A stretch of 64,000 nt of DNA from assembly GCF_004342485.1 (NCBI RefSeq), contig NZ_SMBU01000001.1, forward strand, positions 248,001-312,000, given 5' to 3'. The stretch comes from Roseateles saccharophilus. Its GTDB lineage: Bacteria; Pseudomonadota; Gammaproteobacteria; Burkholderiales; Burkholderiaceae_C. Each line of letters begins with the position of its first letter. Position 1 is the first letter of the stretch. Made by a program: the position numbers and the translations under genes. This document shows, piece after piece, positions 2,082 to 13,324 of the stretch. Under the pieces are notes generated by a model. It saw nothing but the letters and a program-made list of their open reading frames with translations. It was not told where the DNA came from and ran no database searches.

Positions 2082-3638
2082 TCAGCGCGCGGGTTTGTGG
2101 TCTACCGCGCCACGCAGCTTGCGCACGAAGTCGCGCAGCGTGGGCGATTGCTGTGACGCCATCTGGCGCACGCTGCGCACATGCTCCATGGCCTTGAGGC
2201 TGACCTCGGGCGCAATGTGGGCGGCCAGCCCGATGCCGCGGCTGGGCAGGCGATGCATGCCGGCCAGGATGTAGGTCCAGTTCGCCGGGCCGAACAGCGA
2301 CAGGCGCTTGTCCAGATCAGTGGGCGTGGGCAGCTTGGCGTCCCACAGCTGCAGCAGTTCCGCCAGCCGTGGCGGCATGCTGGCCGGGTCGGTGCAGGTG
2401 CGCCAGAACGGCGTGTCCCGGCGCTGTGACAGCGCGTAGTGGGCCACGATGAAGTCGCGCAGCTCCTCGTACACGTCGCCGACGGCACGGTTCAGTCGGT
2501 CGCGGCAGACCGTGCTGTCGCCTGCCGGAGCGATGTGGTCGACGAACAGCTGCAGCACCCACTCGATCAGGTAGATGCCGGTGGACTCCAGCGGCTCGAT
2601 GAAGCCGCCGGCAAGGCCCAGCGCCAGGCAGTTCTGCTCCCAGGCGCGAGCCGCATGGCCCACGCGCATGCGCAGCAGGCGTGGCTCGGCCAGTGCGGTG
2701 CGGCCGGCGTTGTGGCGCTGCAGCGTGGCGACGGCCTCGTCGTCGCTGCAGAAGCGCGACGCATACACATAGCCCGTGCCGCTGCGGCTCTGCAGGTCGA
2801 TCTCCCAGGTCCAGCCGGCGTCCTGGGCGGTGGAGGTCGTGTAGCTGCGCAGCGGCGCGTTCTCGTCGGCATAGGCCACGGGGAAGGCGACCGCACGGTC
2901 GCAGGGCAGCCAGTCGCTGAACGACTCCCAGGGCACATCCAGCGTCTTCTGCAGCAGCAGCGACTGGAAGCCGCTGCAGTCGACGAAGAAGCTGGCCGCG
3001 AAGCGCCGGCCGTCGTCCAGCTCGACGGATTCGATGCCCGCCGGGCCGCGGTGCACCTGGGCGACGTTGCCCTGCACATGCTGCACGCCGCGCTCGATGG
3101 CCGTCTGCTGCAGCAGCGTGGCGAGCTTGACGGCGTCCAGGTGGTAGCCGTAGCTGACCGGTGCCTGGTAGTCCGGCGAGTGCATCAGCTTGGGCGACTG
3201 GTTGCCGTCGTACAGCCGCGTCTGCACGGTGCAGGCCTCGGCCATCGGGGGTTGCAGCATGCCGCGCTGCATCAGGTTCAACCAGTGCACCGTAGCCGGA
3301 TAGCCGTTGAACGGAAGTGGCATGTCGAACGGATGGTCGTAGCTGTCCTCGGCAGCCGTGCCGCCCTTGCGCCAGCCATTGAAGCGGATGCCGTTTTTCA
3401 GCGTCGCGTCGGCAGCCGTGAACAGCGTGCTCTCTGGTAGGCCCAGCGCCTGCATCGTCGCGCGCAGTGTCGGCACGGTGGCCTCGCCGACGCCGATGGT
3501 GCCGATCTGCGGCGACTCGATCAGCGTGATGGGAAGTGGCGTGGGGCGGGTCGCGCTCAGTGTGCGCTGCAGGAAGGCTGCGGCCAGCCAGCCGGCAGTG
3601 CCGCCGCCCACGATGACGATGGATTGGATGTCGGACAA
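2082..3638 (-). CDS. Flavin-dependent tryptophan-halogenase-like protein
   Basis: A 518-residue member of the flavin-dependent tryptophan halogenase family; these use FADH2, O2 and halide to make hypohalous acid that is passed to a catalytic lysine. Seen here: FAD motif GGGTAG at 11-16, GVGEATVPT at about 49-57, the catalytic lysine Lys81 in ATLKNGIRF, and EPLESTGIYL around 349-357 (equivalent to the Glu-Ser pair of PrnA). The motif usually written WxWxIP reads WTWEID (276-281), so the proline is replaced. There is no signal peptide, so it is cytosolic. It is the last gene of an operon with DUF6445 and PEP-CTERM genes, with no NRPS, PKS or tryptophan pathway nearby. Substrate unknown; a protein or small aromatic is possible. 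Confidence 0.85.
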   Translation of the reverse strand: MSDIQSIVIVGGGTAGWLAAAFLQRTLSATRPTPLPITLIESPQIGTIGVGEATVPTLRATMQALGLPESTLFTAADATLKNGIRFNGWRKGGTAAEDSYDHPFDMPLPFNGYPATVHWLNLMQRGMLQPPMAEACTVQTRLYDGNQSPKLMHSPDYQAPVSYGYHLDAVKLATLLQQTAIERGVQHVQGNVAQVHRGPAGIESVELDDGRRFAASFFVDCSGFQSLLLQKTLDVPWESFSDWLPCDRAVAFPVAYADENAPLRSYTTSTAQDAGWTWEIDLQSRSGTGYVYASRFCSDDEAVATLQRHNAGRTALAEPRLLRMRVGHAARAWEQNCLALGLAGGFIEPLESTGIYLIEWVLQLFVDHIAPAGDSTVCRDRLNRAVGDVYEELRDFIVAHYALSQRRDTPFWRTCTDPASMPPRLAELLQLWDAKLPTPTDLDKRLSLFGPANWTYILAGMHRLPSRGIGLAAHIAPEVSLKAMEHVRSVRQMASQQSPTLRDFVRKLRGAVDHKPAR

Positions 3639-3669
3639 GGAAATCTCCGGCGCCGCCGGCGGCGGACGG

Positions 3670-4365
3670 TCAGTTCAGCGCGCTGAGGAACAGGCGTTGC
3701 GTCAACCTGGCGCTCGCCAGCGTCTGCGACGCCGGCACGTCGCGCATGTCGATGGAATGGAAGGCGTTGCCGGGGTACATGACCATACGGTTGAAGCGCC
3801 CCGTCACGGCATGCAACTTGACCCAGACCGTGCCGTCTTCCACGGCATAGGTGTCGGGCTGCGTGCTCTGGCCCTGCTGGTGAAGCCACGCGTCGTAGCG
3901 CTCGATCTCGTCGGCGTTGCGCAGCATGGCCAGGCCCAGCGGCCGATGCTCGAAGAAGGCCGTGCCGACATCCAGTTCGGGGGACAGGTAGACCACGCCT
4001 GCCAGCGGCAGCCCGTCAACGTGCGGATGCTTCTGCTTGGCGAGCATCTGCCGGGCCGGCGTCGTAACGATGGAGAAGTCCGAGAACAGCGCCTCGGCAC
4101 GTACCTGGGCGTGGCCGAGCTGGCGCAGCAGCGTGGCCACGCGCTCGAACAGGGGTTGGATCAGTGCACTGTCGATGCGGGCGTGCAAGCCTGGGTAGTA
4201 GGCCAGCGAGGAGTCGTAGTTGCCGCCGAGCGCCAGCGCCCGCACGGCATGCGGGTCGGCATAGAAGTCGTCGATGACAAGCACCGGGCAGCCGGCGCCC
4301 ACCTGTTCGATGTGGACCGACGCCGCCGTGTTCAGCGCGAATGGGTCGGCGGCGGGGCTGGTCAT
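3670..4365 (-). CDS. DUF6445-family, 2OG-Fe(II)-oxygenase-like protein
   Basis: A 231-residue protein of the DUF6445 type, a family commonly found beside tryptophan-halogenase-like genes. A possible non-haem iron triad can be read: His115-x-Asp117 in HPHVDG and His203 in YPGNAFHS, followed by arginines (220/224) where a 2-oxoglutarate-binding Arg would lie. This makes an iron/2-oxoglutarate oxygenase fold plausible, but activity is inferred. No signal peptide. Its ATG overlaps the stop of the upstream PEP-CTERM gene (ATGA at 4362-4365), so the two are translationally coupled; the halogenase starts 31 bases after its stop. Confidence 0.6.
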   Translation of the reverse strand: MTSPAADPFALNTAASVHIEQVGAGCPVLVIDDFYADPHAVRALALGGNYDSSLAYYPGLHARIDSALIQPLFERVATLLRQLGHAQVRAEALFSDFSIVTTPARQMLAKQKHPHVDGLPLAGVVYLSPELDVGTAFFEHRPLGLAMLRNADEIERYDAWLHQQGQSTQPDTYAVEDGTVWVKLHAVTGRFNRMVMYPGNAFHSIDMRDVPASQTLASARLTQRLFLSALN

Positions 4366-5231
4366 TCCTGCCTACGGCGGCGGCGTGCGGCGGCAAGGCC
4401 CAGGGCGGCCGTGGCGGTCAGCGCCAGCGTGGCCGGCTCCGGCAGGCGGCCCGAAGGCGTGTCGTCGACCTGCAGCGTCAGCACGGCCTGATCCAGGCGG
4501 AACTGGCCAGTCTGCGCGAAGACGCTGGCGTCCAGCGTGCCGGCGGTGGCAAAGCTTGCCAGCGCGAGGCTGTCCAGCGTCATGTCCACGCTGAGCGCGC
4601 CGGAGACGGAGTGATAGACGTTGCGGGACTGGTCGTAATAGGTGTCGGTGCCGTACATGCCGTTGCCCGACTGGCCGGCGAAGACCTGCGGGCCGTAAGC
4701 GGTGGCCGAGTTGCTGACAGAGGAGTCGCTGCCCGTCTGCGTCGTGTTGCCGGCATGCACGCTCATCGTGTCGACGGTGTTGTCGCTGTAGAGCACGTTG
4801 TCGCTGCGTAGGAAGGTGCGGTTGGTGCCCTGCACCGGGTAGTAATAAGCGGGCACGTAGTAGCCGCCGCTGCAGCCGCCGGACCACCAGCTGTAGGACG
4901 TGCAGACGAAGTAGCCGCCGCCGCCGTACTGGTAGAAGGCCGTGAAGTTGGTCTGGGACTCCAGCATGTAGCTGCCGTATTGCGTCACGCCGCTGCCATA
5001 GGAGGCATCGGACACGCCGTACACCTGCAGCGAGCCCGACAGCACCTGCTGGGATTCGAGGTTCTGGCCACTGAGCGTCGAGCCGAGATCGAAGTGCAGC
5101 CCCGTACCGCCCCCGTTGAGCAACTGGCCCAGATTCAGCGTCTGCGACACCGTGACCGGCGCGGCGGAAACCCCGGCGGCGGCACCTGCGGCGACCAGGG
5201 CGCCGGCCAGTTTCGTGATGTCCATTCCCAC
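4362..5231 (-). CDS. PEP-CTERM sorting-domain protein, Tyr/Gly/Cys-rich
   Basis: A 289-residue exported protein. The N-terminus has a Sec-type signal (ALVAAGAAAGVSAAP), and the C-terminus carries a PEP-CTERM tail: PEP at about 264-266, a hydrophobic helix, then a run of five arginines. Such tails are cleaved by exosortase (EpsH/XrtA) for surface or exopolysaccharide-linked display. The middle is rich in Tyr, Gly, Ser and Thr, with a segment around 110-135 unusually dense in Tyr and Trp and holding both of its cysteines. A GTG start at 5231 lies 5 bases after GAGGAG; an in-frame ATG six bases on is the alternative. It is the first gene of the halogenase operon. No exosortase is in the window. 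Function unknown. Confidence 0.8.
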   Translation of the reverse strand: MGMDITKLAGALVAAGAAAGVSAAPVTVSQTLNLGQLLNGGGTGLHFDLGSTLSGQNLESQQVLSGSLQVYGVSDASYGSGVTQYGSYMLESQTNFTAFYQYGGGGYFVCTSYSWWSGGCSGGYYVPAYYYPVQGTNRTFLRSDNVLYSDNTVDTMSVHAGNTTQTGSDSSVSNSATAYGPQVFAGQSGNGMYGTDTYYDQSRNVYHSVSGALSVDMTLDSLALASFATAGTLDASVFAQTGQFRLDQAVLTLQVDDTPSGRLPEPATLALTATAALGLAAARRRRRQE

Positions 5232-5361
5232 GGCAACTCCTCGTTTTGTAGTGGAGTTGATGTTAGGGGGTTGACTTTTCGATGGGAATCGCCAGGTCGC
5301 GGGGTAGGTCCCTCAGACGCGGGGGTGAGGAAGGGCGGTGCGGATTCTTACCGGTTTGGCC

Positions 5362-6573
5362 CTAGACGGTTTCGATGTCCGCCAGCGCCGCGCCGTTGTT
5401 CAGGTCCAGGTAGTTGGCGAGGTTGCCGGGCCGGTAGGGGCGGGCGGCTTCGCCGGGGTCGTGCACGACGGCGGCCTGGCGCCAGCGATCGATGATGGAC
5501 TGGTGCAGCCGCAGGCCGGCGGGCATCTGGCCGGGTGCGACCCGGGCCGCGATGCCCAGCGCCTTCCACGGCAGGTGCTGCCAGGGGGCGTGGGCCCAGG
5601 CGCCGGCTTCGGGCTGGGGCGGCGTGGGCAGCGGGTCGACGAAGCGCAGGCCCCGGGCCGCGACGCCGGCCTGCATCCAGGCCAGGGCCGCGTCCGACAG
5701 GCCGGACTCCTCGGCCGTGTTCGGGTAGCCGCCGCCCACGTCGGCATGGGCGCCGGGGAAGAGCACCTGCGTGATGCAAGCATCGGCTGTCCACAGGCAG
5801 GGCGTGAAGTTCTGGCGCTGCTCGTCGGCCGCCACCGCGTGCAGGCCGCGCTCGACGGCCGGGCTGAGCCGCGTGTCGGCGAACTGCAGCGCGTCCACGA
5901 GGCCGCCGTCGGTGCCGATCTGCGGGATGCCCAGCGACCCCACGGTGTCCCAGACGGCCACCGTCGCGACGGTGATGCCCGTGCGCCGCGGCGGGCTGGC
6001 CGGGCCGGCGCTGAAGAAGCCGGGCAGCGAGGTGAGCAGGTCCTCGAGCCGGCCGAGCAGGGTCGGGTCGCCGCCCAGGGCGCCGCGCCGGTAGTCGCTC
6101 CATGCCGCCGCGCCGAGGCGGTAGGCGTTGGTCTTGTCGTCCAGGTCGCTGTGCGCCGGGTCCAGCAGGCCCTGTGACGCGATCAGCCCGGCCAGCGCCC
6201 GCGCCGTGTAGGCGCCGCGGCTGAAGCCGAGCAGGTGGATGCGGTCGCCGGCCTCGTAGTGGCGCGACACGAAGGTGTAGCCGCGGATAACGCGCGCGAT
6301 CAGCCCGGCGCCCAGCGTGCCGCCCAGCATCTTGACGAGCAGGTTGTTCGAGTCGCCGACGCCGTGCAGGTATTTGGCCGCCTGCAGCGTGGCGCCGGCG
6401 CCATCGACGAGGAAGCGCTCCTGCTCGTCGGCCAGCGCGATCGTGTCCAGAGAATCGACGCCGGCCAGGTTGTGGAAGAGCTTGAGCACATTGGTCGGCG
6501 GCCCCGGCTCCTCCTCGTCGCTGCCGCTGCCGTTCCAGGTGCCGTCGGCACAGAAGACGATCTGCTTGCCCAT
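5362..6573 (-). CDS. DUF2235 (Tle1-like) alpha/beta hydrolase
   Basis: A 403-residue DUF2235 protein. The N-terminal CADGTWN (8-14) and the nucleophile elbow GFSRGAYTAR (Ser118) are the hallmarks of this family, which includes type VI secretion phospholipase effectors (Tle1) and uncharacterised hydrolases. A HADVGGGY segment later in the protein is also typical. There is no signal peptide, no PAAR/VgrG/Hcp gene and no obvious immunity gene adjacent, so a secreted-effector role is not supported by context. It stands alone between the PEP-CTERM operon and a divergent DUF2332 gene. Confidence 0.75.
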   Translation of the reverse strand: MGKQIVFCADGTWNGSGSDEEEPGPPTNVLKLFHNLAGVDSLDTIALADEQERFLVDGAGATLQAAKYLHGVGDSNNLLVKMLGGTLGAGLIARVIRGYTFVSRHYEAGDRIHLLGFSRGAYTARALAGLIASQGLLDPAHSDLDDKTNAYRLGAAAWSDYRRGALGGDPTLLGRLEDLLTSLPGFFSAGPASPPRRTGITVATVAVWDTVGSLGIPQIGTDGGLVDALQFADTRLSPAVERGLHAVAADEQRQNFTPCLWTADACITQVLFPGAHADVGGGYPNTAEESGLSDAALAWMQAGVAARGLRFVDPLPTPPQPEAGAWAHAPWQHLPWKALGIAARVAPGQMPAGLRLHQSIIDRWRQAAVVHDPGEAARPYRPGNLANYLDLNNGAALADIETV

Positions 6574-6712
6574 GGGGTCCTCCCAAGCGTTGAAGCCCGT
6601 CTTTTAGACCGGAGCGGGCGTTTCAGCCATCCCCTGCGGCGTGCTGCCACCAGCGCCCGCGGCCCAGGCGCAGTCGTGCAATGCCGGCGGCGGGCCTGCC
6701 TATGCTGGCGGC

Positions 6713-7825
6713 ATGGATCACCCCGAAGAACTCGCCGAACTGCTACGCCGCTTCGGCCGCGAGGAATGCGCGCAGGAGCCGCTCTACGCCGCGCTCTGCG
6801 AACTGGCCGCCGAGGACGCCCGGCTGTGCGCGCTGCTGGCCGAGGCGCCGCCCGAGCAGCGCAAGGTCAACCTGCTGCTGGCCGCGCTGCACGAGCGCGT
6901 GCTGGCCGGTGCCGCGACCGAGCTGGCGGCCTACTACCCGAGCGCCGGCGGCGGGCGGGCCGTGGACAGCGGCCTGGCCGCCGCGCTGGCGGCCTGCGTC
7001 GAGCGCGAATGGCCGGCCCTCGTGCAGCATTTGCGCCATGGCGCGACGCAGACCAACGAGGTCGCCCGTGGCGCGGCGATCTGGCCGGCCCTGGGCGCCG
7101 CGGCCGCCGCCACCGGCGCCCGCCATCTCGCGCTGCTGGACTTCGGCTGCAGCGCGGGCCTGAACCTGGGCGTCGACCGGTACGCGCTGCGCTACCGCGG
7201 CGACGACGGCGGCTGGCATGCCCGCGGCGCGGCGCGCGACGGGCGCGCGGCCGAAATCGAATCGCTGTGGCTGGGCGGCGCGCCGCTGCCGCCGCTTGAT
7301 GCCGGCTGGCGCCTGGCGCTGCGCCACGGTCTGGACCCGGCGCCCGTCGACGTCAACGACCCCGCGCGCCTGCGCTGGCTGCAGGCCTGCCTGTGGCCGC
7401 ACGACGCGCGCCGCCGCGAGCGCCTGGCCCGCGCGGCGGCGCAGCTGCAGGCGCTGCCGCACCGGCTGGCCCGGGCCGACGACTGCGTCGCGGCCATCGA
7501 GCCCTGGCTGCTCGGCCTGCCGGCCGGCGTGCAGCCCGTGCTGCTGACGAGCTGGGTGCTGTACTACCTGAGCCCGGCCGACCTCGCGCGGCTGCGCGTG
7601 ACGGTGGACCGCCTCGCGCTGGGCCACGGCCTGGCCTGGATCTGCGGCGAATTGCCGGCACTGAGCGCACGGTGCGGCGCCGCGCCGCCGCTGCCCGCCA
7701 TGCCCGCCGGCGAGGTCGCGGCGTCGGCCACGCTGTGGACGCTGCGCCATGCGCGGGCCGGTCGCATCGCGGAGCGGCACCTGGGCTGGAGCCACCCGCA
7801 CGGGCGCTGGGTCGCCTGGCTGTAG
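6713..7825 (+). CDS. DUF2332-family protein
   Basis: A 370-residue cytosolic protein of the DUF2332 type, a conserved family without a firmly assigned reaction. Features that fit: the N-terminal helical region with ALCELAAED and PEQRKVNLLLAALH, the central Gly-rich segment LLDFGCSAGLNLGVDRY (a nucleotide- or SAM-binding-like loop), and LTSWVLYYLSP near the C-terminus. The Gly-rich loop resembles motif I of methyltransferases, so SAM binding is a reasonable guess only. The ATG at 6713 gives the N-terminus seen in relatives; longer in-frame starts add a low-complexity leader. It precedes the aminotransferase gene by 64 bases. Confidence 0.62.
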   Translation: MDHPEELAELLRRFGREECAQEPLYAALCELAAEDARLCALLAEAPPEQRKVNLLLAALHERVLAGAATELAAYYPSAGGGRAVDSGLAAALAACVEREWPALVQHLRHGATQTNEVARGAAIWPALGAAAAATGARHLALLDFGCSAGLNLGVDRYALRYRGDDGGWHARGAARDGRAAEIESLWLGGAPLPPLDAGWRLALRHGLDPAPVDVNDPARLRWLQACLWPHDARRRERLARAAAQLQALPHRLARADDCVAAIEPWLLGLPAGVQPVLLTSWVLYYLSPADLARLRVTVDRLALGHGLAWICGELPALSARCGAAPPLPAMPAGEVAASATLWTLRHARAGRIAERHLGWSHPHGRWVAWL

Positions 7826-7889
7826 AGGCCGCTATGGGGGTATTTGCGGCCGCTCGGATAATCTCGGCTTCCCAACGGAGTCGAGCCCC

Positions 7890-9086
7890 ATGTTCCAGCA
7901 CGTCGATGCCTATGCCGGCGATCCCATCCTGAGCCTCAACGAGGCCTTCCAGAAGGACCCCCGCGCCGGCAAGATCAACCTGTCCATCGGCATCTATTTC
8001 GACAACGACGGCCGCATCCCGATGCTGCCCTCGGTGCGCGCCGCCGAGCTGGCCGTCGTCGAGGCCGCGGGCCCGCGGCCCTACCTGCCGATGGAGGGCG
8101 CGGCCAACTTCCGCAGCGCCGTGCAGGCCCTGCTGTTCGGGCCCGAGCACGTGGCGCTGAAGGCCGGCCGCATCGCGACCATCCAGGGCGTGGGCTCCAG
8201 TGGCGGCCTCAAGGTCGGCGCCGACTTCCTGAAGCGCTATTTCCCCGACAGCAAGGTCTATCTCTCCGACCCGACCTGGGACAACCACCGCGCCGTCTTC
8301 GAGGGCTCGGGCCACAGCTGCGAGACCTATCCCTACTACGACGCGGCCACCGGCGGCGTGCGCTTCGAGGCCCTGCTCGCTCATTTCAAGGCCCTGCCGG
8401 CGCGCAGCGTCGTGCTGATGCATGCCTGCTGCCACAACCCGACCGGCGTGGACCTGAGCCAGGACCAGTGGCGTGCGCTGGTGCCCGTCATCCGCGAGCG
8501 CGGGCTGCTGCCCTTCCTGGACCTGGCCTACCAGGGCTATGGCGACGGCATCGAGGAGGACGCCTTCGCGCCGCGCCTGCTGGCCGACGAGGGCCTGAGC
8601 TTCCTGATTGCCAACAGCTTCTCCAAGAGCATGAGCCTGTACGGCGAGCGCTGCGGCGCGCTGAGCGTCGTCTGCCCCGACGCCGACCAGGCCGCGCGCG
8701 TGCTCGGCCAGCTGAAGTTCATGATCCGGCGCAACTATTCCAACCCGCCTATGCATGGCGGCCAGATCGTCGCCAAGGTGCTGACCGATCCGAAGCTGCG
8801 TGCGATGTGGGAGGCCGAGGTGGCCGAGATGCGTGGCCGCATCCAGGAGATGCGCCGCCAGCTGCACGACGTGCTGGCCGCGAAGCTGCCGGGCCGCGAC
8901 TTCGGCTACTTCCTGACCCAGCGCGGCATGTTCAGCTACACCGGCCTGACGCCGGAACAGGCCGAGCGCCTGAAGACTGAGTTCGGCGTCTACATCCTGC
9001 GCTCGGGCCGGATGTGCGTGGCGGGGCTGAACACCCGCAACGTCGAAGCCACCGCCGAGGCGATGGCCGCCGTGCTGGCGGCCTGA
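7890..9086 (+). CDS. tyrB: Aromatic/aspartate aminotransferase (class I, PLP)
   Basis: A 398-residue fold-type I aminotransferase of the AspC/TyrB branch. The N-terminus (DPILSLNEAFQKDPRAGKINLSIGIY) and the Schiff-base lysine Lys246 in NSFSKSMSLYGER are diagnostic, and CCHNPTGVDL holds the Asn that contacts the PLP ring. It interconverts aromatic amino acids (or aspartate) and 2-oxo acids using glutamate, in the last step of Tyr/Phe synthesis. Length equals the family norm. The start ATG at 7890 is chosen because it begins the conserved N-terminus; the longer frame overlaps the previous gene. Whether it prefers aromatic or dicarboxylic substrates cannot be read from sequence alone. Confidence 0.87.
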   Translation: MFQHVDAYAGDPILSLNEAFQKDPRAGKINLSIGIYFDNDGRIPMLPSVRAAELAVVEAAGPRPYLPMEGAANFRSAVQALLFGPEHVALKAGRIATIQGVGSSGGLKVGADFLKRYFPDSKVYLSDPTWDNHRAVFEGSGHSCETYPYYDAATGGVRFEALLAHFKALPARSVVLMHACCHNPTGVDLSQDQWRALVPVIRERGLLPFLDLAYQGYGDGIEEDAFAPRLLADEGLSFLIANSFSKSMSLYGERCGALSVVCPDADQAARVLGQLKFMIRRNYSNPPMHGGQIVAKVLTDPKLRAMWEAEVAEMRGRIQEMRRQLHDVLAAKLPGRDFGYFLTQRGMFSYTGLTPEQAERLKTEFGVYILRSGRMCVAGLNTRNVEATAEAMAAVLAA

Positions 9087-9094
9087 CACGATCC

Positions 9095-9958
9095 ATGCGA
9101 CAGCGGCTCTGCGGCCTCGCCGCGCTGCTGCTGGCCGGTTCTGCCCAGGCGGCAGGGCCGGTGGTGGACAGCATCGTCTGGCTGAACGGCGACACGCTCG
9201 CGGTGCGCGTCGGCGACGGCGTCGTGCGGCCCTCCGACATGATCTCGAGCTGGCTGCAGGCCCATATGCCGGGTGTCGAGCTCAGGCCGACGCTGGCCAA
9301 TGCCGAACGCAGCTGGACGCTGGTCCGCCAAGGTGAGAAGGCCTGCATCGCCAACGCGGTACGCCTGCCGGAGCGCGAGCGCCTGGCCTATTTCAGCGCG
9401 GTCTGGCTGATGCCGCCGCCCCAGCTCATCGTGCGCCGCGAGCGCCTTGATGCGCTGCCGCTGGATGTGCGCGGCGCCGTCAACCTGCAGACCCTGCTGG
9501 CCGATGCCTCGCTGCGTGGCGCCATCGCCCAGGGGCGCAGCTATGGCCCGGCGCTGGACGCGCTACTCGCACCAGGCGGCGTGGGGCTGCTGCGCGTGAC
9601 GGGCGCCGACTTCGGCAGCAACCTGGTCTCCATGGTCCTGCAGGACCGGGTGGACTACACGGTCGAATATCCCAACATCCTCGTCGCGCTGGGCAGCCAG
9701 CGCGAGGGCGAGCTGCCGCTCGCGGCGCTGCCGGTCAAGGGCGCCGCCGACCCCGTCCCCAGCGGCGTGGCCTGCCCCCGCACGCCTTGGGGCCACGCGG
9801 CCATCCGCCTGATCGACCAGGCCCTGGGCACGCCCGCCGGCGCGGCCATGCTGCGCGAGGCCCTGCGCATTTCCCTGCCGGCCGACACCCAGCGCGCCTA
9901 CCGCGACGCCTTCGACGCCTACTTCCAGCGCCGCGCCAAACCCACGCCCGGGCTGTAG
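9095..9958 (+). CDS. Periplasmic solute-binding-like protein (TIGR02285-like)
   Basis: A 287-residue exported protein with a signal peptide ending GSAQA-A. The body (VDSIVWLNGDTLAVRVGDG near the N-terminus, SWTLVRQGEKACIANAVRLPER about 70 residues in, and DRVDYTVEYPNI) looks like the TIGR02285 group of periplasmic binding-like proteins, relatives of the amino-acid-binding family 3. It starts 8 bases after the aminotransferase stop, so it may be co-transcribed. No permease or ATPase is adjacent; such orphans often act as environmental sensors or have unknown roles. A second binding-like protein of similar size is at 18906. Confidence 0.55.
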   Translation: MRQRLCGLAALLLAGSAQAAGPVVDSIVWLNGDTLAVRVGDGVVRPSDMISSWLQAHMPGVELRPTLANAERSWTLVRQGEKACIANAVRLPERERLAYFSAVWLMPPPQLIVRRERLDALPLDVRGAVNLQTLLADASLRGAIAQGRSYGPALDALLAPGGVGLLRVTGADFGSNLVSMVLQDRVDYTVEYPNILVALGSQREGELPLAALPVKGAADPVPSGVACPRTPWGHAAIRLIDQALGTPAGAAMLREALRISLPADTQRAYRDAFDAYFQRRAKPTPGL

Positions 9959-10107
9959 AGCGTGTTCCCGATCCCATCGGCGCCATGAGGGGACCGTAAA
10001 CAAGCGCTTGGCCATAACGCGGAGTGATGGCCGCAGCCGCCGCTTTCATTGGCAGCGGCGCCCAAGCATCCTTACGCTGCCGGCTGAAGAATTGGCCCAG
10101 GGGCAGG

Positions 10108-11349
10108 ATGAAGCATTGCGTGGTGATCGGCGGTGGCGTGGTGGGCCTGACCACCGCCTGGGCGCTGCTGGAGCGCGGTCACGCGGTGACGCTGCTGGAG
10201 CGCGACGAGGCCGTCGCCCAGGGCGCCAGCCGCGCCAACGGCGGCCAGCTCAGCTACCGCTATGTGTCGCCGCTGGCCGACGCCGGCGTGCCGTTGAAGG
10301 CGCTGCGCTGGCTGCTCGACCCCGACGGCCCGCTGCGCTTCAAGCCCGAGGCCAGCCGGGCGCAGTGGGCCTGGCTGATCGCCTTCCTGCGCAACTGCCG
10401 CGGCCCGGTGAACCGCCGCAGCACCGAGCGCCTGCTGGCCCTGGGCGCCTACAGCCAGGCCGCGTTCGCGCGCCTGCAGGCCGAGGCGCAGCTGGGCGAC
10501 ACCATCGCACTGCGCACGCCGGGCAAGCTGGTTGTCTACCGCAATTCCACCGAGTTCGCCCGCGCGGCGGCGCGCGCGAACGCCGGCCTGGAGCAGGCCC
10601 TGTCGCACGACGACTGTGTCGCGCTGGAGCCGGCGCTCGCCGACACCGAGGCGACGCTGGCCGGCGGCATCTTCACGCCCGGCGAGGCCGTGGCCGACTG
10701 CCATGCCTTCTGCGCCGCACTGCACGCACGCTTGAGTCAGCGCGAGCGCTTCCGCGGGCGCCTGGGCGCGCGGGTCGATGGCCTGCTGCGCGACGGCCGC
10801 GGCGCCGTGCGGGGCGTGAGCACCGGCCTGGCCGAGGTCGGCGCCGATGCCGTCGTGCTGGCCGCCGGCCTGGCCAGCCGCGCGCTGGCCGCGACGGTCG
10901 GCGTGGCGCTGCCGCTCTACCCGCTGAAGGGCTACAGCCTGACCGCGCCGATCGGCCCCGGCCACCGCCCGCCCGAGGTCAGCGTGACCGACTTCGAGAA
11001 GAAGATCCTCTACGCCCGCATCGGCCACGAGCTGCGCGTGGCCGCGATGGTCGACCTCGTCGGCGACGACGCCAGCCTGGACGCCGGCCGCCTGGCCTCG
11101 CTGCAGCGTTCGGTGCGCGCCACCTTCCCGCACGCGGCCGACTATGACCGCGCCACGCCCTGGGCCGGCCTGCGCCCGGCCACGCCCAGCGGCGCGCCCA
11201 TCCTCGGCGCCAGCGGCGTCTCCGGCCTGTGGCTCAATGTCGGCCATGGCGCACTCGGCTTCACCTTCTCCTTCGCGACGGCCAACATCGTGGCCGAGCT
11301 GGTCAGCGGCCGTGCCAGCCCGCTGCCTCTGGACGGCCTGACGCTGTGA
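10108..11349 (+). CDS. dadA: D-amino-acid dehydrogenase-like FAD oxidoreductase
   Basis: A 413-residue FAD-dependent oxidoreductase of the DadA/DAO family. The N-terminal Rossmann motif VVIGGGVVGLTTAWALLERGH (about 4-24), the family-typical SRANGGQLSYRYVSPLAD, the substrate-domain segment LYPLKGYSL and the C-terminal TPSGAPILG...NVGHGALGFT are all visible. DadA oxidatively deaminates D-amino acids to 2-oxo acids, passing electrons to the respiratory chain. The start ATG at 10108 follows AGGGGCAGG. The next gene overlaps its stop (GTGA), so dadA, a serine hydrolase and an LD-carboxypeptidase form one unit, suggesting use of D-amino acids released from peptidoglycan peptides. A perfect CAAGCGCTTG palindrome lies upstream (10001-10010). 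Confidence 0.82.
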   Translation: MKHCVVIGGGVVGLTTAWALLERGHAVTLLERDEAVAQGASRANGGQLSYRYVSPLADAGVPLKALRWLLDPDGPLRFKPEASRAQWAWLIAFLRNCRGPVNRRSTERLLALGAYSQAAFARLQAEAQLGDTIALRTPGKLVVYRNSTEFARAAARANAGLEQALSHDDCVALEPALADTEATLAGGIFTPGEAVADCHAFCAALHARLSQRERFRGRLGARVDGLLRDGRGAVRGVSTGLAEVGADAVVLAAGLASRALAATVGVALPLYPLKGYSLTAPIGPGHRPPEVSVTDFEKKILYARIGHELRVAAMVDLVGDDASLDAGRLASLQRSVRATFPHAADYDRATPWAGLRPATPSGAPILGASGVSGLWLNVGHGALGFTFSFATANIVAELVSGRASPLPLDGLTL

Positions 11350-12443
11350 CCGCCGACGATCTCGCCGCAGCGCTGTGCGCCGCCGTGCTCGCCCAGCGCT
11401 TCGAGACGACCCCCGACGGCCAGCAGGGCGGCGCGCCACTGGGCTGGCACCCGAGCATCGACCTCGCGGTGGCCGTGTTCCCGCGCGGCGCGGCGCCGGT
11501 CTGCGCCAATGTGCTGTTCTCGCGCGAACATCCGCAGGGCCTGGTCGCGCGCTTCGACGGCGGGGACGGCGCGGTCGACAACATCGGCTTCCATGCCGAT
11601 GTGCGCGACGCGGCCGGCGACTCCTTTGCCTGGCTGCCCGGCGCGGACTGGTCGCGCATCGCCTTCCCCGCCTGGTTCGGCAGCGGGCCGAGGTTCGTCG
11701 CGCCCTACCCGGCGTCGCTGTTGAAGACCCTGGTCGCCGTCGGCGTGGCCCGCCTCGTCGACGCCGGCCGCAGCGACTGGGCCCTGCCGCTGGCCCATGG
11801 TGGCGCGACCCGCCCGTTGGCCGACTGGCTGTTCGACATGATCACGGTCAGCAGCAACGAGGCCACGTCGGCCCTCGTCGCCCATCTGCATGCACGCGGC
11901 GCCATCCGCCGCGAGGGCGGGCGCGAGGTGCGCAACGAGCTGCACGAACTCTTCGAAGCCCAGGGCCTGCCGGGGCTGCGGCTGGCCAACACCGCGGCCG
12001 ACGGCGGCTGGGGCAATGGCGCCGGCGCGGGCGTCGGCCAGATCCAGATGACGGCCTGGGACGCGCTGCGCCTCGTCTGGCGGCTGGACGCCGACGCGCC
12101 GGCCCGGCCGCCGCTGGTCAGCGCCGCCAGCCGCGCCGTCATCCGCCGCGCGCTGGACGCGCAAAGGCTCAACGAGATCCTGTCCAGCGAGTCGCTGCGC
12201 GCGCTGCCGGGCTGGGTGGCCGGCATCCCGGCGCCCCCCGCGCGGTTCGCGCACAAGACCGGCAACACGCAGAACTACGGCAGCGATGCCGGCATCGTGC
12301 ACGACGGCGACCTGCACTATCTGATCGCGGTGACGACCAGCCTGGGCCAGCGCCATGCACCGCATCCCGATGCAGCGACGACCTGGAAGCTGCCGGCCCT
12401 GGGCGCGGCGGTGCATGCATGGCTGAAGACGGCGAATTCCTGA
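11346..12443 (+). CDS. SxxK serine hydrolase (beta-lactamase/PBP-like)
   Basis: A 365-residue protein with the three motifs of penicillin-recognising serine enzymes: SLLK (Ser124-Lys127), SSN near 168-170, and KTG near 304-306. The GTG start at 11346 overlaps the dadA stop as GTGA. No convincing signal peptide is seen at the N-terminus, so the enzyme may be cytosolic, unlike true beta-lactamases. It could be a D,D-peptidase, a peptide or amide hydrolase, or an esterase. Its position between a D-amino-acid dehydrogenase and an LD-carboxypeptidase (whose gene overlaps its 3' end by 25 bases) suggests work on D-amino-acid-containing peptides. Confidence 0.68.
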   Translation: MTADDLAAALCAAVLAQRFETTPDGQQGGAPLGWHPSIDLAVAVFPRGAAPVCANVLFSREHPQGLVARFDGGDGAVDNIGFHADVRDAAGDSFAWLPGADWSRIAFPAWFGSGPRFVAPYPASLLKTLVAVGVARLVDAGRSDWALPLAHGGATRPLADWLFDMITVSSNEATSALVAHLHARGAIRREGGREVRNELHELFEAQGLPGLRLANTAADGGWGNGAGAGVGQIQMTAWDALRLVWRLDADAPARPPLVSAASRAVIRRALDAQRLNEILSSESLRALPGWVAGIPAPPARFAHKTGNTQNYGSDAGIVHDGDLHYLIAVTTSLGQRHAPHPDAATTWKLPALGAAVHAWLKTANS

Positions 12444-13324
12444 TCCCGCCGCTGCGCCGCGGCGCGGGCATCGCCGTCATCGCGCCGGCCGGCCCGCCCG
12501 GGCCCGGGCGTCTCGAACCCGTCGAGGGCTGGCTGCGCGAGCGCGGCTACGCGCCCACGCTGCTGCCGAGCTGCTACGGGCCGGCGCCGCTGGACTTCCT
12601 CGCCGCGCCCGATGCCGTGCGCCTGGCCGACGTGCACGCCGCCTTTGCCGACCCGCGCTTCGATGCCGTGCTGGCGCTGCGCGGCGGTTCGGGCTGCATC
12701 CGCCTGCTCGACCGCCTGCAGCCCGGCCGGCTCGCGGCCAGCCGCAGGCTGCTGATCGGCTACAGCGACCTGACCGTGCTGCATGCGCTGCGCACGAACG
12801 CCGGCATCCCTTCGCTGCACGCGCCCATGCCGGCCAGCGACTGGGGCCTGCCCGGCGCCGCGGCCGACACCGAGGCGCTGTTCGCGGGCCTGGCGCGTGG
12901 CTGGCGGGCCGGCGACCTGCTGGGCCGCGCCCGGCCGCAGGCGCTCAGCCACGGCGGGCGGGCGCGCGGGCGCCTGATCGGCGGCAACCTGGCGATGTTC
13001 TGTGCGCTGCTCGGCACGCCCTATCTGCCCGAGGCCGACGGGGCCCTGCTCTTCATCGAGGACATCGGCGAGGAGCCCTACCGCGTCGACCGCATGCTGA
13101 GCCAGCTGCGCCTGGCCGGCGTGCTGGGCCGCATCGCCGGCCTGGTGCTGGGCAGCTTCAGCGGCGCCGGGAGCCCGGACGCCGTGCTGGCCGACCACCT
13201 GCAGGGCCTGCCCTGCCCGGTGCTGGCCGGCTGGCCCGCCGGCCACGGCCAGCCCAACCGGCCGCTGCCGCTGGGCCTGCACGTCGAACTCGACGTGGCG
13301 GCCGGCACGCTGACGCTGGTCTGA
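12419..13324 (+). CDS. ldcA: LD-carboxypeptidase (peptidase S66, LdcA)
   Basis: A 301-residue cytosolic S66 peptidase. LdcA removes the terminal D-Ala from murein tetrapeptides during peptidoglycan recycling. The nucleophile Ser lies in LIGYSDLT (after LALRGGSGCIRLLDRL), the catalytic Glu in LLFIEDIGEEPYRVDRML, and the catalytic His in PAGHGQPNRPLPLG. The gene overlaps the upstream serine hydrolase by 25 bases and shares its promoter. Unlike the second copy at 19679, this one has no export signal. It ends before a terminator-like hairpin that belongs to the opposite strand. Confidence 0.87.
   Translation: MAEDGEFLIPPLRRGAGIAVIAPAGPPGPGRLEPVEGWLRERGYAPTLLPSCYGPAPLDFLAAPDAVRLADVHAAFADPRFDAVLALRGGSGCIRLLDRLQPGRLAASRRLLIGYSDLTVLHALRTNAGIPSLHAPMPASDWGLPGAAADTEALFAGLARGWRAGDLLGRARPQALSHGGRARGRLIGGNLAMFCALLGTPYLPEADGALLFIEDIGEEPYRVDRMLSQLRLAGVLGRIAGLVLGSFSGAGSPDAVLADHLQGLPCPVLAGWPAGHGQPNRPLPLGLHVELDVAAGTLTLV

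What the first reader, a model, noticed from the sequence alone, without database searches (positions are those of the whole stretch)
2082..5231. Coupled operon of PEP-CTERM protein, DUF6445 protein and tryptophan-halogenase-like enzyme
Seen: three minus-strand genes, the first two overlapping as ATGA and the third 31 bases on. The first makes an exported PEP-CTERM protein rich in Tyr and Trp; the others look like an iron/2-oxoglutarate oxygenase and a flavin halogenase. Known: halogenases of this family modify tryptophan or other aromatics, usually in secondary-metabolite clusters, none of which is here. Inference: the two enzymes may halogenate or hydroxylate aromatic residues of the PEP-CTERM substrate before export, a surface-protein modification system not described to my knowledge.
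Basis: partly seen in the sequence, partly recalled or inferred. Interest (0 to 1): 0.78.

Follow-up and report, generated by a model that had tools for sequence, protein, structure and literature searches.

The report
Cassette modifying a bacterial surface protein
Three linked bacterial genes appear to form a dedicated kit in which a halogenase-like enzyme and an iron oxygenase chemically alter tryptophans in one exposed loop of a cell-surface protein; this is inferred from comparison and still needs a test.

Summary
Observation confirmed: a PEP-CTERM protein, a DUF6445 protein and a PF04820 flavin halogenase form one minus-strand operon (ATGA overlap, then 31 nt). The trio is a real unit: eight distinct loci keep the three genes in the same order with different flanks (window, a congener, two genomes of its family, one of its order, two Massilia, one alphaproteobacterial MAG cut at its end). 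None of 51 non-trio DUF6445 rows examined shows a credible PEP-CTERM neighbour. All eight hosts encode exosortase. Seven of seven full-length PEP-CTERM partners carry a short Cys-bracketed loop containing Trp (CTSYSWWSGGC here); 0 of 11 control PEP-CTERM proteins do. In the window protein every Trp and Cys lies in that loop, which AlphaFold leaves as a disordered tip. DUF6445 models as a 2-oxoglutarate/iron oxygenase, is fused to halogenases elsewhere in the genus, and sits in RiPP-like clusters in Streptomyces. The halogenase keeps the catalytic Lys and Glu but lacks a PrnA lid stretch. Best reading: the two enzymes modify the Trp loop (halogenation and/or hydroxylation) before export and exosortase sorting. 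Linkage and motif are shown by comparison; substrate, chemistry and purpose are inferred. No paper describing it turned up in our open-access searches.

The parts
4362..5231 (-). PEP-CTERM protein gene (289 aa), proposed substrate
5160..5231 (-). signal-peptide-like N-terminus (about residues 1-24)
   Evidence: read from sequence by eye; no predictor run
4872..4904 (-). Cys-bracketed Trp loop, residues 110-120, CTSYSWWSGGC; proposed modification site W115/W116
   Evidence: such a loop in 7 of 7 full-length homologues
4365..4442 (-). PEP-CTERM sorting tail (PEP, hydrophobic stretch, Arg cluster)
   Evidence: TIGR02595 21.1 bits against cut-off 16
3670..4365 (-). DUF6445 gene (231 aa), predicted Fe(II)/2-oxoglutarate oxygenase; H115, D117, H203, R220 invariant in 16 aligned members
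2082..3638 (-). flavin-dependent halogenase gene (518 aa, TTG start); K81 and E351 align with PrnA K79 and E346 (catalytic role recalled)

Best explanation
The trio is a dedicated protein-modification cassette. The PEP-CTERM protein is the substrate; two cytoplasmic enzymes made from the same operon act on it before it is exported by Sec and sorted by exosortase. The flavin halogenase (FADH2 supplied by a general flavin reductase) halogenates or otherwise oxidises Trp in the Cys-bracketed loop, and the DUF6445 2-oxoglutarate/Fe(II) oxygenase hydroxylates or crosslinks residues in or beside it; the Cys pair probably closes the loop by a disulfide after export. Shown by comparison: linkage, gene order, loop conservation, catalytic residues, exosortase in every host. 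Predicted: the oxygenase fold. Inferred: that this protein is the substrate, the order of steps, the chemistry, and the use of the product (adhesion, matrix, UV or redox properties).
For: Trio in eight distinct loci with the same order; neighbours differ (GPx and Tle1-like in the window by Pfam; other flanks read by eye). PEP-CTERM and DUF6445 reading frames overlap in 6 of 8 loci (4 bases in window, G016, Root335, L074, G308; 8 bases in G352), with gaps of 9 (ZL223) and 3 bases (L075). Full-length PEP-CTERM homologues in 2 of 100 sampled genomes, the same 2 that carry trio-type DUF6445. No credible PEP-CTERM neighbour in 51 non-trio DUF6445 rows. Trp loop in 7 of 7 full-length partners against 0 of 11 controls; one Trp is the only invariant column inside the loop of the 7-row alignment, with invariant Tyr columns on either side. 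The loop falls in a stretch with pLDDT<50 (residues 104-123) between confident strands. Trio halogenases form one group, 94/92, of 8 in 30. The PrnA lid stretch that I recall as binding free Trp is missing. DUF6445: HxD...H...R invariant in 16 of 16; fold matches to prolyl and lysyl hydroxylases of proteins. Halogenase and DUF6445 are one fused protein in 14 of 51 non-trio rows and at one further locus of the window's own genome (L061), so the two enzymes are natural partners. DUF6445 lies beside TIGR03975 RiPP radical SAM enzymes in two Streptomyces. Exosortase in 8 of 8 hosts.
Against: No biochemical evidence. The fused halogenase-DUF6445 pairs and other halogenases of this genome lie near TonB receptors (seven long ORFs tested, all receptors), not PEP-CTERM proteins, so the enzyme pair itself is not specific to surface proteins. 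Catalytic Lys and Glu are kept in 30 of 30 halogenases of the tree, so they do not mark the trio. An acid replaces Pro of the WxWxIP motif in 8 of 8 trio members (1 of 22 others), so halogen transfer is not certain. Number and place of Trp in the loop vary; one loop has a single Trp, and two proteins have further Trp outside it. The substrate model is weak (best 73.0, other four 50.7-58.5 mean pLDDT). A Sec substrate must be caught before export. L075 is cut, so its loop was not seen.
Confidence: 0.6

Rival explanations
1. The halogenase-like enzyme hydroxylates rather than halogenates, and the enzymes build a Trp-derived cofactor or a Trp/Cys crosslink in the loop, as QhpG does on the way to cysteine tryptophylquinone.
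For: The QhpG model matches the window halogenase weakly (E 3.5e-7, 29.5 bits against cut-off 240). QhpG dihydroxylates a peptidyl Trp (Trp43, next to Trp42, in a chain with Cys37) and its structure resembles FAD halogenases (PMC7876137, passages). Every loop holds Trp and Cys. Pro of WxWxIP replaced by an acid in 8 of 8.
Against: Residues aligned with the halogenase Lys and Glu are kept in 8 of 8. Cys-Trp spacing is not constant across the loops. No dehydrogenase or heme subunit recognised next to the genes.
Confidence: 0.15
2. The enzymes act on a free small aromatic molecule, and the PEP-CTERM protein is a surface binder or carrier of it, in the place that TonB receptors hold beside other halogenases of this genome.
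For: Seven long ORFs near own-genome halogenases are all TonB receptors, at one locus with SapC, Cupin_8 and a halogenase-DUF6445 fusion. So the same enzyme pair works beside a receptor elsewhere.
Against: Trio halogenases form their own group and all seven full-length PEP-CTERM partners have the Trp loop; I recognised no other biosynthetic gene directly next to the trio in the loci read (mostly by eye).
Confidence: 0.15
3. The PEP-CTERM protein is a RiPP-like precursor: the modified Trp loop is cut out and released as a small product.
For: DUF6445 occurs in RiPP-like clusters; peptide Trp halogenases are known from RiPPs (PMC10858898 abstract; PMC12518702 abstract and passages).
Against: The rest of the protein is conserved, with a predicted beta domain and a sorting tail, and I recognised no linked precursor protease or exporter.
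Confidence: 0.05
4. The co-transcription is incidental and the proteins are functionally unrelated.
For: The trio is rare: 2 of 20 genomes of the genus, 2 of 62 of the Massilia genus.
Against: Eight loci with conserved order and different flanks, one of them in an alphaproteobacterial MAG.
Confidence: 0.05

Closest known systems
RiPP-directed flavin halogenases (MibH, SrpI, ChlH)
   Same: Flavin halogenases that act on Trp within a ribosomally made chain; SrpI contacts the disordered region of an otherwise structured substrate (PMC10858898, abstract); ChlH also chlorinates an internal Trp of a 1054-residue protein (PMC12518702, passages).
   Different: Here the proposed substrate is an exported, exosortase-sorted 289-residue protein. 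Of 30 PDB sequences matched, MibH (5uao) is the weakest (E 1.2e-58), so the enzyme is not of the MibH/ChlH branch by similarity.
QhpG, maturation enzyme of quinohemoprotein amine dehydrogenase
   Same: Flavoprotein that resembles FAD halogenases and oxidises a specific Trp in a protein (PMC7876137, passages).
   Different: The window enzyme is far below the QhpG model cut-off (29.5 against 240 bits) and the Cys-Trp spacing of the loops varies.
TonB-receptor-linked Trp halogenase loci, including halogenase-DUF6445 fusions with SapC and Cupin_8
   Same: Same two enzyme families as partners, even fused in one protein.
   Different: Outer-membrane receptor instead of a PEP-CTERM protein; halogenase placed before DUF6445 in the fusions, after it in the trio; separate branches in the tree.
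PEP-CTERM/exosortase sorting system
   Same: Signal-like N-terminus, PEP-CTERM tail, exosortase in the genome.
   Different: A linked modifying enzyme pair of this kind was not found in print by the searches (open-licence PMC papers only).

Membership tests
Flavin-dependent halogenase (PF04820) | Profile match over full length | tested here: met
   E 1.5e-134, residues 7-473
Flavin-dependent halogenase (PF04820) | FAD motif GxGxxG, catalytic Lys and Glu | tested here: met
   GGGTAGW, K81, E351 in 8 of 8 trio members; the role of PrnA K79/E346 is recalled; also kept in the other 22 proteins
Flavin-dependent halogenase (PF04820) | WxWxIP motif (recalled) | tested here: not met
   WxWxI followed by Asp or Glu in 8 of 8 trio members; both Trp kept. 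Three PDB entries (9lu2, 2pyx, 9ltb) also lack the Pro, so the motif is not decisive
Flavin-dependent halogenase (PF04820) | Halide-dependent activity | not testable with these tools
   no assay
Free-tryptophan halogenase (PrnA/RebH type) | C-terminal lid stretch binding the amino acid backbone (recalled) | tested here: not met
   ten residues of PrnA in that stretch have no counterpart
2-oxoglutarate/Fe(II) oxygenase superfamily (DUF6445) | HxD...H metal triad and distal Arg | tested here: met
   H115, D117, H203, R220 invariant in 16 of 16 aligned members
2-oxoglutarate/Fe(II) oxygenase superfamily (DUF6445) | Double-stranded beta-helix fold | tested here: met
   AlphaFold pLDDT 86.6, pTM 0.86; all seven PDB matches with E<=0.001 are such enzymes: prolyl-4-hydroxylases, OGFOD1, LH3, WelO5 (TMq 0.39-0.52, rmsd 4.8-10.7): family level clear, detail weak
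PEP-CTERM/exosortase substrates | Signal peptide, PEP-CTERM tail, exosortase in the genome | tested here: met
   TIGR02595 over cut-off; PF09721 in 8 of 8 hosts; signal peptide read by eye
RiPP system | Short leader-core precursor with linked protease or exporter | tested here: not met
   289-aa protein with predicted beta domain and sorting tail; the four neighbouring ORFs given to Pfam show none
TonB-linked halogenase locus | Adjacent TonB-dependent receptor | tested here: not met
   neighbours matched GPx and Tle1-like families

The most novel reading that the evidence does not exclude
A dedicated cassette that halogenates and hydroxylates Trp residues in a Cys-capped, disordered loop of an exosortase-sorted surface protein: a post-translational modification system for PEP-CTERM proteins and a natural whole-protein (not RiPP) Trp halogenase.
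Probability: 0.4. Interest if true: 0.87.

Novelty: new variant of a known kind. Interest (0 to 1): 0.76.

Why it matters
This genome alone has 14 full-length matches to the Trp halogenase family, and for most such enzymes no substrate is known to me. This cassette names a candidate protein substrate and the residues, so the question becomes one mass-spectrometry test. If right, it would add halogenated or hydroxylated Trp to the chemistry of bacterial surface proteins, give DUF6445 a function, and supply enzymes that mark a loop in a whole protein, of use for labelling.

Tried and rejected
Chance neighbourhood: disfavoured by eight conserved loci. Spread: trio-type DUF6445 in 2 of 100 relatives, 2 of 20 of the genus, 3 of 399 of the family, 2 of 399 of the order, 1 of 369 of the class, 1 of 398 of the phylum, 1 of 23 of the genus of G539, 2 of 62 of the Massilia genus; samples overlap and those centred on the window include its own genome. 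Weaker matches at E 1e-25 to 1e-30 (two and nine) are not trio type. Plasmids: six records, at most 30.6% identity. Viral contigs: 76 loci, at most 30% identity; their neighbourhoods were not examined. PEP-CTERM beta domain: no PDB match with E<=0.001, nothing claimed. DUF6445 profile against PDB sequences: chance-level matches only. The PEP-CTERM pattern also matched three non-trio rows (L017, L078, L093); read in context none is a credible tail. Of the 51 non-trio rows (48 distinct loci) many carry only about 1.5 kb each side, so a more distant PEP-CTERM gene would be missed. The shuffle test treats seven homologues as separate, so its combined value overstates; 7 of 7 against 0 of 11 is the safer statement. 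The controls were pattern-picked from fetched loci (mostly tail matches), not random; of the 12 printed I dropped L075, itself a cut trio member. Gene calls in scripts came from a crude caller, and several flank labels are by eye.
Full report
Observation. Searches confirm three minus-strand genes at 4362-5231, 3670-4365 and 2082-3638, with an ATGA overlap between the first two and a 31-base gap before the third. Family searches give a PEP-CTERM tail (TIGR02595 above cut-off), DUF6445 (PF20043, E 1.8e-37) and Trp_halogenase (PF04820, E 1.5e-134). The neighbours on either side match glutathione peroxidase and a Tle1-like lipase domain.

Conservation. A search of 100 relatives with the DUF6445 protein gave one clear orthologue besides the window (G016, 58%, E 3e-86); the next match was E 3e-19. 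The PEP-CTERM protein hit the same two genomes over its length and otherwise gave C-terminal partial matches. In G016 all three genes stand in the same order with 46-47, 57 and 62% identity, between different neighbours. A scan of the genome-contig collection (84,980 species by its description) with the two-row DUF6445 alignment gave 15 loci. Five carry the trio: Massilia sp. Root335, Massilia sp. ZL223, a proteobacterial MAG (L074), an alphaproteobacterial MAG (L075, contig cut inside the PEP-CTERM gene) and a 15,809-base Burkholderiales contig (L072) that by length and position is G016's. The other ten are distant DUF6445 without a PEP-CTERM partner. Samples of the window's family and order added G352, G308 and G539, G539 being the same contig as L074. 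Distinct loci: window, G016, G352, G308, Root335, ZL223, L074/G539, L075 = 8. The trio is sparse (2 of 20 in the genus; 2 of 62 in the Massilia genus), which suggests horizontal transfer (inference). In a tree of 30 halogenases the eight trio members fall on one side of a branch with support 94/92; the tree also held 13 others from the window's own genome, which has 14 full-length PF04820 matches plus one short one.

Contrast set. Of 51 non-trio DUF6445 rows (48 distinct loci), 23 have a halogenase nearby and none a credible PEP-CTERM tail; three pattern hits were spurious on reading. In 14 of the 51 the halogenase and DUF6445 form one open frame of 732-745 residues within the stretch held; Pfam confirms both domains in the two of these I submitted (L021, L023) and in L061, a further locus of the window's own genome. 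Seven long ORFs chosen beside own-genome halogenases are all TonB-dependent receptors; at L061 SapC and Cupin_8 stand between the receptor and the fusion. So the two enzymes are habitual partners, and the PEP-CTERM protein is what sets the trio apart.

The target motif. The middle of the PEP-CTERM proteins is variable, Tyr-rich and gapped, yet each of the seven full-length members has a Cys-bracketed loop with Trp: CTSYSWWSGGC, CYYSWWGGSSC, CSYWSWSC, CYYTWLGSRRC, CGSWGWSTC, CSWWSWSC, and CSWC followed by W. In five of seven all Trp lie in the loop or touch it; G016 and G352 have further Trp elsewhere. In the 7-row alignment one Trp is the only invariant column inside the loop, with invariant Tyr columns on both sides. 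None of 11 control PEP-CTERM proteins has such a loop. AlphaFold with five sequences gives a beta domain (ten-residue means mostly 72-91) and leaves residues 104-123 below 50 as a tip between strands 89-102 and 129-149; the best model averages 73.0 and the other four 50.7-58.5, so it is only a guide.

The enzymes. The halogenase keeps the FAD motif and the residues aligned with PrnA K79 and E346, as do all 30 proteins of the tree. It lacks ten residues of the PrnA stretch that I recall as holding the backbone of free Trp. An acid replaces the Pro of WxWxIP in 8 of 8 trio members; of 22 others 18 have Pro, 3 Gly and 1 Glu. Neither enzyme begins like a signal peptide (by eye), so cytoplasmic action before export is inferred. 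DUF6445: H115, D117, H203 and R220 are invariant in 16 aligned proteins; the model (pLDDT 86.6) has seven PDB matches with E<=0.001, all 2-oxoglutarate oxygenases: prolyl-4-hydroxylases, OGFOD1, LH3 and the halogenase WelO5. In two Streptomyces, tandem DUF6445 genes lie beside a TIGR03975 RiPP radical SAM C-methyltransferase (E 4e-169 and 2e-168), and on a Piscinibacter plasmid beside DUF692 and TfuA-like genes. These settings make ribosomal peptides or proteins a plausible substrate class for the family.

Mechanism. Best explanation as stated, confidence 0.6: modification of the Trp loop in the cytoplasm, then Sec export and exosortase sorting (exosortase in 8 of 8 hosts). Shown: linkage, motif, residues. 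Predicted: oxygenase fold. Inferred: substrate identity, chemistry, timing, purpose. Main rivals: a QhpG-like cofactor or crosslink, and a small-molecule role with the PEP-CTERM protein as binder.

Literature. Searches for DUF6445 (0 papers) and PEP-CTERM with tryptophan halogenase found nothing. Halogenase with exosortase gave two papers, whose passages place the terms in unrelated contexts; one of them is also the only paper for halogenase with PEP-CTERM. PEP-CTERM with posttranslational modification and tryptophan gave one paper on a Xanthomonas effector, seen as a listing only. Tryptophan halogenase with SapC and TonB-dependent gave none. Only open-licence PMC papers are held. RiPP Trp halogenases and QhpG are the closest precedents.

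Verdict. A conserved three-gene unit, not found in print by these searches, with an unusually clear candidate target; the chemistry is untested.

Noticed in passing
L061:5285-7510 and rows L021-L038 (14 of them): Single proteins fusing a Trp halogenase to DUF6445 in the window's own genome and in other sampled genomes, mostly of its genus; at L061 in a locus with a TonB receptor, SapC and Cupin_8.
   Followed up: partly
L076:6858-10469: Candidatus Caenarcanales MAG: three tandem DUF6445 genes followed by a Trp halogenase that also has Glu at the WxWxIP proline position; substrate unknown.
   Followed up: partly
L077, L078 (about 3900-13100), L079 (about 6500-11600): Streptomyces and Nonomuraea loci with two or more tandem DUF6445 genes; in L077 and L078 a RiPP radical SAM C-methyltransferase, and in L078 and L079 small ORFs with similar C-termini that look like precursor peptides (by eye): possible RiPP clusters using DUF6445.
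   Followed up: partly
L184:3103-10189 (plasmid NZ_CP136338.1): DUF6445 in a row with DUF692, carbamoyltransferase-domain, TfuA-like and GNAT genes.
   Followed up: no
L097-L172: Distant DUF6445-like proteins are common in IMG/VR viral contigs (76 loci), several as C-terminal parts of ORFs of about 550-1000 aa.
   Followed up: no
G000: The window's genome has 14 full-length Trp halogenase matches, seven long ORFs near them being TonB-dependent receptors.
   Followed up: partly
window 5362-6573: Next gene upstream has a T6SS Tle1-like phospholipase catalytic domain (PF09994, E 3e-63).
   Followed up: no
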